Notes under the pieces: generated by a model
What the model was told of the DNA's origin: nothing
The model's input: only the letters and a program-made list of their open reading frames with translations
The model's database searches: none
Source: Candidatus Latescibacterota bacterium
Lineage (GTDB): Bacteria > JAAXHH01 > JACQVL01
NCBI GenBank assembly: GCA_016209865.1
Contig: JACQVL010000107.1
Span: 1 to 15,919 of the forward strand
DNA: 15,919 nucleotides
Reading direction: 5' to 3'
In this document: positions 5,327 through 8,102 of the stretch, piece by piece
Numbering within the stretch: position 1 is the first letter of the stretch
Layout: the number at the start of each line of letters is the position of its first letter
Made by a program: the position numbers and the translations under genes

Positions 5327-6457
5327 ATGACCATTCGCGACATCAACGTCTTTCCCGTCTGGGAAGGCTGGCGGAATTACCTGATCGTGAAAGTTGACAC
5401 GGATGAGGGACTGTACGGCATCGGTGAGGGCGGGCTGACCTGGCGTGAGCTGGCGGTGCTGGAGACGATCAACTCCCTCAAGCCGCTCCTCATCGGTCAG
5501 GATGCGACCCGGATCGAGCATCTCTGGCAGGTGATGTTCCGGAGCGGATTCTTCCCCGGCGAACGGACGCTCTCGTCTGCCATCAGCGCGATCGACATCG
5601 CCCTGTGGGACATCCAGGGCAAAGCCTTCGGCGTGCCCGTCTACCGGCTCTTGGGCGGACGGTGCCGGGATCGAGTGGTGTGTTATCCCCACTGCGACAG
5701 CAGCACGACGGACGGGCTGGTGGAGAACGCGAAGAAGGCGGTGACGGACGGCTGGAAGTTCATCCGGTTCCATCTCCCGTCCGATGGCGACGTGCTCGAG
5801 CCATCCCGCGCCGTCCGGCGGGCGATCCAGGCCTGCGCCGCCGTGCGGGAGGCGGTCGGGGACGACATCGAACTGCTGCTCGACGTCCACACCCGGCTCG
5901 ACCCGGCGGACGCGATCACCCTCTGCCGGGCGGTCGAGCCGTACCGGCTGTACTTCGTCGAAGACCCGCTCCGGTCGGAGAACACGGCGTCGTACCACCA
6001 GCTCCGCCGGCACGTGGCCGTCCCGCTCGGCGTCGGGGAACACTACGCGAGCAAGTGGGAGTTCCGCGAACTGATCGAGCACGACCTGATCAATTATGCC
6101 CGCGTGGATGTGTGCCTTGTCGGCGGGCTGACCGAGGCGAAGAAGGTGGCGGGCTGGTGCGAGACGCACTACATCAACTTGGCGCCCCACAACCCGCTCG
6201 GTCCGGTCTCGGCCGCAGCGTGCCTCCACCTCGACCTGGCGGCGCCGAACTTCGGGGTGCAGGAGCTGCCCCGGAAGCCGGGCGCGATGTCGGATGTGTT
6301 CCCCGTGCAGGTCGAATGGAAGGACGGCTACCTGTTGCCCCCCGACCGGCCGGGTTTGGGGGTGGAGTTCGACGAAGACGCGGCGCGGAAGCACCCGTAC
6401 CAGCCCGGCCAGACGCCGATGCTCCACCGGGAGGACGGGGCGTTTACGAATTGGTGA
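5327..6457 (+). CDS. Enolase-superfamily sugar-acid dehydratase, D-galactonate dehydratase (DgoD)-like
   Basis: This 376-aa enzyme belongs to the mandelate racemase/muconate lactonizing group, which abstracts a proton alpha to a carboxylate. The Mg2+ ligands are Asp186 (LLLDVH), Glu212 (FVEDP) and Glu238 (GVGEH). Acid/base residues are His188 and the His288-Asp261 dyad (LAPHNPLGP; RVDVC), with Glu313 at the late active-site position. All lie exactly three residues after the E. coli D-galactonate dehydratase positions as I recall them (183, 209, 235, 185, 285, 258, 310). The length and the C-terminal HREDG...NW ending also fit that family. Expected chemistry is dehydration of a sugar acid to a 2-keto-3-deoxy sugar acid. 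The exact sugar acid is not certain, because fucon-, gluc- and galact-specific relatives share this set. ATG 5327 has GGAG at 5318-5321. The next gene starts 11 bases after its stop. Confidence 0.87.
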   Translation: MTIRDINVFPVWEGWRNYLIVKVDTDEGLYGIGEGGLTWRELAVLETINSLKPLLIGQDATRIEHLWQVMFRSGFFPGERTLSSAISAIDIALWDIQGKAFGVPVYRLLGGRCRDRVVCYPHCDSSTTDGLVENAKKAVTDGWKFIRFHLPSDGDVLEPSRAVRRAIQACAAVREAVGDDIELLLDVHTRLDPADAITLCRAVEPYRLYFVEDPLRSENTASYHQLRRHVAVPLGVGEHYASKWEFRELIEHDLINYARVDVCLVGGLTEAKKVAGWCETHYINLAPHNPLGPVSAAACLHLDLAAPNFGVQELPRKPGAMSDVFPVQVEWKDGYLLPPDRPGLGVEFDEDAARKHPYQPGQTPMLHREDGAFTNW

Positions 6458-6468
6458 TCGGAGCCTCC

Positions 6469-8025
6469 ATGCTCCTCGGCGACATCCTCCGCCGCAACGC
6501 GGATCCACGACGCTTTGGGGACAAGACGGCGGTTATCTTCAGGGAGACCGCGCTGACGTACCGCGAACTGAACGGCCGGGTCAATCGATTGGCTCACGGG
6601 CTTCTCGGGCTCGGGGTGCGCAAGGGCGACCGTGTGGCGGTGCTCGGCCGGAACTCCGATGCGTACGTCGTCATCTACTTCGCCCTGGCGAAAATCGGGG
6701 CGATCATCGTGCCGGTCAATTACTGGTACAGAGCGGCGGAGATCACGTACACCCTCGACCAGTCGGAGAGCGCTGTCTTCATCGTGGAAGACCGGTTCGA
6801 AGAGACCGTCGCTCCGGTCATCCGGGATCGATCCGGCCTATCCGTCCTTTTTTACGGCGCGGGAGCCAGCGGATCGGCCACGCTGGAATCCCTGATCGAA
6901 TCGTCCTCGCATGCGGAGCCGTCCGTCGCCGTGGCGGATGACGACCCGCACATCATCCTGTACACGAGCGGGACGACCGGGTTTCCCAAAGGGGCGATAC
7001 TGTCCCACCGGAATCATGTCATCCACGCGATCGCATGGGTGATCGAGACGAGTGTCGTCGAAGCGGACGTCGGTCTCATCGTCTACCCCCTTTTCCACAC
7101 GGGCGGGCCGGATTGCGTCCTTCTGCCCCATTTCCTCGTCGGCGCGACGGTGGTCATCCTCGACCGGGCCGACCCGCCGGACATCTTGGGGGCGATCCAG
7201 CGACACCGTGCGACGAACCTGTTCTGCGTGCCGACCGTCTGGCGCCGGTTGCTCGCCTTCCCGGAACTCGACCGGTACGATGTGCACACGCTCAGTCGAT
7301 GTCTCGGCTCGTCTGATACGTTCCCGCCCGATCTGCTCAACGCCATCAAGCAACGCTTCAACGCGGACGTGTACGTGACGTACGGGCTGACGGAAGCGGG
7401 TTGCATCCTGACGTTCTCGAAGCTGACGCGGGATGGCCGGGGGAAGATCGATGCTGTCGGACGGCCGCATCCGTTCGTCGAGGTGCGCGTGGTCGGTCCC
7501 GACGGACAGGATGTCCCGGCGGGCGAGGTGGGGGAGGTGATCGCCCGTGGGGAGACGATCATGTCCGGCTACTGGCGGATGCCAGAGAAGACGGCGGAGG
7601 CGATGCGGGACGGCTGACTGCACAGCGGCGACCTCGGCCGGTTTGATGATGACGGCTATCTGGCTATCGTCGGCCGGTCGAAGGATATGATCATCAGCGG
7701 CGGGGAGAAGGTCTACCCGGTCGAAGTCGAGAAACTCCTCCGGCAGCACGCGAAAATCAAGGACGCCGCGGTGATCGGTGTCCCGGATGAAGAATGGGGG
7801 GAGTCGGTGCTCGCCGTCATCGTCCCGGAACGCGGCCAGGCGCTCGATGCGAGTGAGGTCATCGATTACGTCCGGGCGCGATTGGCGGGCTACAAGAAGC
7901 CCCGGTACGTCGAGTTCGTCGAGGCGCTTCCGGTCACGACAGCGACTGGCAAGGTGCAGAAAGCGGTGCTCCGGGAGCGGTACAAAGAAAAATACGGACG
8001 AAAAGGGGAAGAGGCGAAACGGTGA
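6469..8025 (+). pseudogene. Acyl-CoA synthetase (AMP-forming), interrupted by an in-frame TGA
   Basis: This is an ANL-superfamily ligase that would activate a carboxylic acid as acyl-AMP and then acyl-CoA. From ATG 6469 (GGAG at 6460-6463) the N-terminal domain has the P-loop YTSGTTGFPKG (165-175) and YGLTEAG (305-311). Codon 383 (7615-7617) is TGA, in the sequence Asp-Gly-stop-Leu-His-Ser-Gly-Asp, where the family has DGWLH(T/S)GD. One G-to-A change in TGG explains it. The frame then continues intact to 8025 with SGDLGRFDDDG, GRSKDMIISGGEKVYPVEVE and the catalytic Lys495 in TGKVQK. The truncated 382-aa product would lack the mobile C-terminal domain and probably activity. Neighbouring genes end in TGA, so reassignment to Trp is unlikely. 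It could be a recent nonsense mutation or a sequencing or assembly error. The substrate is unknown; medium- or long-chain or aromatic acids are typical. Confidence 0.88.
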
Positions 8026-8082
8026 AAAGGGAACGGATTCCTTCTCTCATGTTGCGTCCCTGGTACCTGTTGTTCGGTTGTC

Positions 8083-8102
8083 ATTCCCGCGAAAGCGGGA
8101 AT
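8083..8102. repeat. Short palindromic dispersed repeat, copy 3 (loop GAAA)
   Basis: The core is ATTCCCGC-GAAA-GCGGGAAT, flanked by GTC on the left and CCA on the right. It lies between the interrupted acyl-CoA synthetase and the amidase. Its right end is only 17 nt before the amidase GTG, so it could form a structure near the amidase translation-initiation region. Confidence 0.85.

What the first reader, a model, noticed from the sequence alone, without database searches (positions are those of the whole stretch)
7615..7617. Single in-frame TGA at the invariant Trp of an otherwise intact acyl-CoA synthetase
The stop replaces the Trp of the DGWLHxGD motif, both sides are full of conserved motifs, and no frameshift is needed. 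It separates the adenylating domain from the lid domain with the catalytic Lys. Options are a very recent nonsense mutation, a sequencing or consensus error, UGA read-through, or two polypeptides reconstituting an enzyme (an ATG at 7687 is too late to include the hinge motif).
Basis: seen in the sequence. Interest (0 to 1): 0.6.

Follow-up and report, generated by a model that had tools for sequence, protein, structure and literature searches.

The report
Acyl-CoA synthetase gene with nonsense codon
A fatty-acid-activating enzyme gene in an uncultured bacterium's draft genome carries one stop codon in its middle, most likely a recent inactivating mutation or an assembly error in an organism that uses the standard genetic code, so it is ordinary.

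Summary
A TGA at 7615-7617 is the only interruption in an AMP-forming acyl-CoA synthetase frame (6469-8025, 518 codons, stop at codon 383). Both halves match the same families, and all 27 near-invariant residues are present, 12 of them after the stop.

Two details need correcting. The site is aromatic (W 65, F 42, Y 11 of 121 homologues), not an invariant Trp. The stop also lies before the A7 Asp388 and Arg403, not only before the lid.

Every testable recoding route failed. RF2 is present. TGA is the commonest terminator in the genome. The only tRNA-Trp found is a CCA tRNA with a normal 5-bp anticodon stem and without the known suppressor changes. A tRNA-Sec exists, but no SECIS follows this TGA. 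A survey of 1.08 Mb of the genome found only three credible single-stop interruptions (2 TGA, 1 TAG), so TGA is not special. Two polypeptides starting at ATG 7687 would leave residues 383-406, with Asp388 and Arg403, untranslated.

The best reading is a single nonsense substitution, presumably TGG to TGA: a recent or strain-level loss of function, or a consensus error in this 356-contig draft. Reads are needed to choose between these two. Low interest.

The parts
6469..8025 (+). AMP-forming acyl-CoA synthetase (fatty-acid--CoA ligase-like) frame, interrupted by one TGA
7615..7617 (+). in-frame TGA at codon 383, an aromatic position of the A7 region (DGW-LHSGD)
6469..7614 (+). upstream fragment, 382 codons: AMP-binding domain without the A7 Asp
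   Evidence: PF00501, 300.5 bits
7618..8022 (+). downstream part: A7 Asp388, Arg403, hinge Asp406, lid domain with Lys495, all intact
   Evidence: PF13193, 73.1 bits
7687..8025 (+). ORF from the first ATG after the stop (Met407); the AAGG is only a base or two from the ATG, and no GTG or TTG lies earlier
5327..6457 (+). neighbouring enolase-superfamily dehydratase gene (galactonate dehydratase-like) that itself ends in TGA

Best explanation
One base substitution (inferred G to A in a TGG Trp codon) has put a stop into an otherwise intact acyl-CoA synthetase gene. It is either a recent or strain-level nonsense mutation, in which case the enzyme is lost, or a consensus error in a draft metagenome-type assembly, in which case the cell has an ordinary gene. 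I put the split at about 60:35 in favour of a real mutation. Shown: the stop, the intact motifs on both sides, the standard code and normal decoding tRNAs, and similar isolated stops, one of another type, elsewhere in the genome. Inferred: the ancestral codon and the loss of activity.
For: Single in-frame stop with 27 of 27 near-invariant residues kept, 12 of them downstream. The ratio of downstream to upstream identity is within the range of intact homologues (1.43 against 1.29 +/- 0.20), so there is no sign of long decay. All Trp-bearing homologues use TGG, one transition from TGA. RF2 is present. The only tRNA-Trp found is CCA with stem CCGGA/TCCGG, A9 and G24. TGA ends 305 of 580 long ORFs. 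A survey of 1.08 Mb found three credible single-stop splits: this TGA, a TAG inside a Helicase_C domain (L209:328) and a TGA in an IS4-type transposase (L170:7806), so there is a low background of isolated nonsense codons that is not specific to TGA. Assembly errors are a documented source of such false pseudogenes (PMC11017572).
Against: The downstream part shows no decay at all, so a real mutation must be very recent. No sister genome of the same genus or family is held, so the state of the site in relatives was not tested directly. Reads are not available.
Confidence: 0.94

Rival explanations
1. UGA is read through as Trp at a useful level by the ordinary tRNA-Trp, giving some full-length enzyme.
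For: The codon sits where Trp is commonest, and the next base is C, which I recall as a weak termination context in E. coli. Background UGA read-through by a normal tRNA-Trp occurs in E. coli (PMC13092985).
Against: tRNA-Trp has a 5-bp anticodon stem and lacks the G24A and A9C suppressor changes. RF2 is present. TGA is the main terminator, and this gene and its upstream neighbour both end in TGA. There is no TGA at this site in any homologue.
Confidence: 0.04
2. Two polypeptides, 1-382 and 407-518, form a split enzyme.
For: Both parts are intact on the sequence level, and an ATG exists at 7687.
Against: Residues 383-406 would be in neither product; they hold Gly387, Asp388 and Arg403 (near-invariant) and the hinge Asp406. 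There is no properly spaced ribosome-binding site at 7687 and no GTG, TTG or ATG before it; only a CTG such as the one at 7618 could serve.
Confidence: 0.012
3. The UGA encodes selenocysteine.
For: The genome has a tRNA-Sec gene, tca anticodon.
Against: The site is aromatic in homologues and Cys in only one of 121. The downstream stretch folds no better than shuffles (z 0.24), and no SECIS family matches.
Confidence: 0.004
4. The organism has reassigned UGA to Trp.
For: An in-frame TGA at a Trp-rich position.
Against: About 3,600 TGG codons lie in the sampled long ORFs, against two credible in-frame TGAs by a screen with 43% sensitivity. There are no stops inside 52 ABC-domain matches. No tRNA-Trp UCA was found, and RF2 is present.
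Confidence: 0.002

Closest known systems
Single-nonsense pseudogenes and assembly-error false pseudogenes of bacterial drafts (PMC11017572)
   Same: One internal stop in an otherwise intact conserved gene
   Different: Nothing found; reads could not be checked here
[quoted passage not shown]
   Same: In-frame UGA at a Trp position and no UCA tRNA-Trp
   Different: Here the stem has 5 bp (C27:G43), A9 and G24 are normal, RF2 is kept and UGA is the main stop
AMP-forming acyl-CoA synthetases (ANL superfamily; NCBIfam PRK06187.1)
   Same: All motifs and both domains, in frame
   Different: One nonsense codon at the aromatic residue before the A7 Gly-Asp

Membership tests
AMP-forming acyl-CoA synthetase | P-loop motif YTSGTTGxPKG and the Glu of the YGxTE motif | tested here: met
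   residues 165-175 and 305-309
AMP-forming acyl-CoA synthetase | A7 Gly-Asp, Arg403, hinge and catalytic Lys in one polypeptide | tested here: not met
   all present in the DNA (D388, R403, D406, K495) but after the in-frame stop
Nonsense-interrupted gene (pseudogene or assembly error) | conserved family match continues in frame across one stop, in a genome with the standard code | tested here: met
Nonsense-interrupted gene (pseudogene or assembly error) | read support for the base and intact copy in sister genomes | not testable with these tools
   no reads; no genome of the same genus or family held
UGA-to-Trp recoded genome | tRNA-Trp UCA or 4-bp-stem or suppressor tRNA-Trp CCA | tested here: not met
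   about 83% complete genome, so an unseen tRNA is possible
UGA-to-Trp recoded genome | many in-frame TGA at Trp sites, TGA not used as stop | tested here: not met
   TGA ends 305 of 580 long ORFs; only two credible in-frame TGA in 1.08 Mb
Selenoprotein gene | tRNA-Sec in the genome | tested here: met
Selenoprotein gene | SECIS hairpin just after the UGA, and Cys in homologues | tested here: not met

The most novel reading that the evidence does not exclude
The UGA is a conserved, regulated read-through site that makes a truncated and a full-length acyl-CoA synthetase in this lineage.
Probability: 0.01. Interest if true: 0.5.

Novelty: already known. Interest (0 to 1): 0.06.

Why it matters
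It matters little beyond annotation. The gene should be marked as interrupted by a single stop that needs read support, and it is no evidence for a changed genetic code. The genome has at least two other isolated stops of this kind, which is a mild warning about consensus quality or recent gene loss.

Tried and rejected
Genome-wide UGA reassignment: rejected. Suppressor-type or 4-bp-stem tRNA-Trp: rejected by reading the tRNA (PMC13092985). Selenocysteine: tRNA-Sec exists, but there is no SECIS and no Cys pattern. Split enzyme from ATG 7687: rejected, since residues 383-406 would be lost. Hints of in-frame stops in other acyl-CoA synthetases of the genome (C122, flagged '1 TGA') were checked: no internal stop lies in its aligned part. 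Most of the 13 survey candidates looked like antisense artefacts or a normal gene end (the S18-L9 junction, L171); this sorting was by eye, and only the helicase and the transposase were confirmed with family models. The whole genome was not available as a file, so about 1.08 Mb was sampled as stretches. A literature search for acyl-CoA synthetases working with a lid domain in trans gave nothing on point.

Full report
Observation. The frame from ATG 6469 to TGA 8025 encodes a 518-residue AMP-forming acyl-CoA synthetase if the TGA at 7615-7617 (codon 383) is read through; it is the only internal stop. The two sides match AMP-binding (300.5 bits) and AMP-binding_C (73.1 bits), and the joined sequence passes the NCBIfam cut-off for a long-chain-fatty-acid--CoA ligase family in one continuous stretch. 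The best solved relatives are fatty-acyl/feruloyl-CoA synthetases (8weu, 8wev).

The residue. In 121 homologous matches the position is Trp in 65 (always TGG), Phe in 42, Tyr in 11 and another residue in 3. It is therefore an aromatic site, not an invariant Trp. Five other acyl-CoA synthetase-like stretches of the same genome were aligned over it: four have Trp in the corresponding stretch and one has Tyr.

State of the gene. Of 104 intact homologues aligned, 15 near-invariant columns lie before and 12 after the stop; the window sequence agrees at all of them, including Asp388, Arg403 and Lys495. The ratio of downstream to upstream identity is 1.43, within the spread of intact homologues (1.29, sd 0.20). 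Third-position G+C is 0.83 before and 0.78 after the stop. Nothing shows decay after the stop, so the change is recent or is not in the cell at all.

Genetic code. The genome (3.75 Mb in 356 contigs, 83% complete) has RF2. Its tRNA-Trp has anticodon CCA. By my reading of its sequence the anticodon stem is CCGGA/TCCGG, five pairs with C27-G43, position 9 is A and position 24 is G. It therefore lacks the 4-bp stem and the A9C and G24A changes reported to favour UGA decoding (PMC13092985). No tRNA-Trp UCA was seen. In 1.08 Mb of sampled genome, TGA ends 305 of 580 ORFs of at least 250 aa. The upstream neighbour and this gene itself both end in TGA.

Background of isolated stops. A codon-usage screen of the same 1.08 Mb, with 43% sensitivity on stops placed at random, gave 13 candidates. 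By eye, three look real: this gene (TGA), a TAG inside a Helicase_C domain (L209:328, match continuous across the stop) and a TGA in an IS4-type transposase (L170:7806, match continuous across the stop). No stop lies in any of 52 ABC-domain matches of the whole genome. With so few cases TGA is not visibly enriched beyond its share of stop codons, so these read as scattered nonsense codons and not recoding. Such stops are known to arise both by mutation and by assembly error (PMC11017572).

Selenocysteine and split enzyme. The genome has a tRNA-Sec, so UGA recoding may occur elsewhere in it. Here no SECIS family matches, the stretch after the TGA folds no better than shuffles, and Cys occupies the site in one homologue only. 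A second polypeptide from ATG 7687 starts at Met407. Residues 383-406, with Asp388, Arg403 and hinge Asp406, would be in neither product, and the AAGG before 7687 is too close to the ATG. The roles of Asp388 (ribose binding), the hinge and Lys495 are from general knowledge of the superfamily, not tested here.

Conclusion. This is one nonsense substitution, inferred TGG to TGA, in a conserved enzyme gene: either a very recent or strain-level loss or a consensus error. The finding is real as a sequence feature and ordinary as biology. The deciding evidence, reads or sister genomes of the same species, was not available.

Noticed in passing
window 8074-8100 and 385-407: A short palindromic repeat (cattcccgcgaaagcgggaatcc) that recurs at some 30 other places in the genome: a REP-like dispersed element.
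   Followed up: no
L209:328 (G000:C316): An in-frame TAG inside the Helicase_C domain of a helicase gene near a contig start; the family match continues across it.
   Followed up: partly
L170:7806 (G000:C177): An in-frame TGA in an IS4-family transposase; the family match continues across it.
   Followed up: partly
L252 (G000:C14:8916-9009): A tRNA-Sec gene, so this genome probably makes selenoproteins somewhere.
   Followed up: no
L160 / L104 (G011:C70): An acyl-CoA synthetase of another genome of the same order has a TAA aligned with query residue 165, just at the ATP-binding motif.
   Followed up: no
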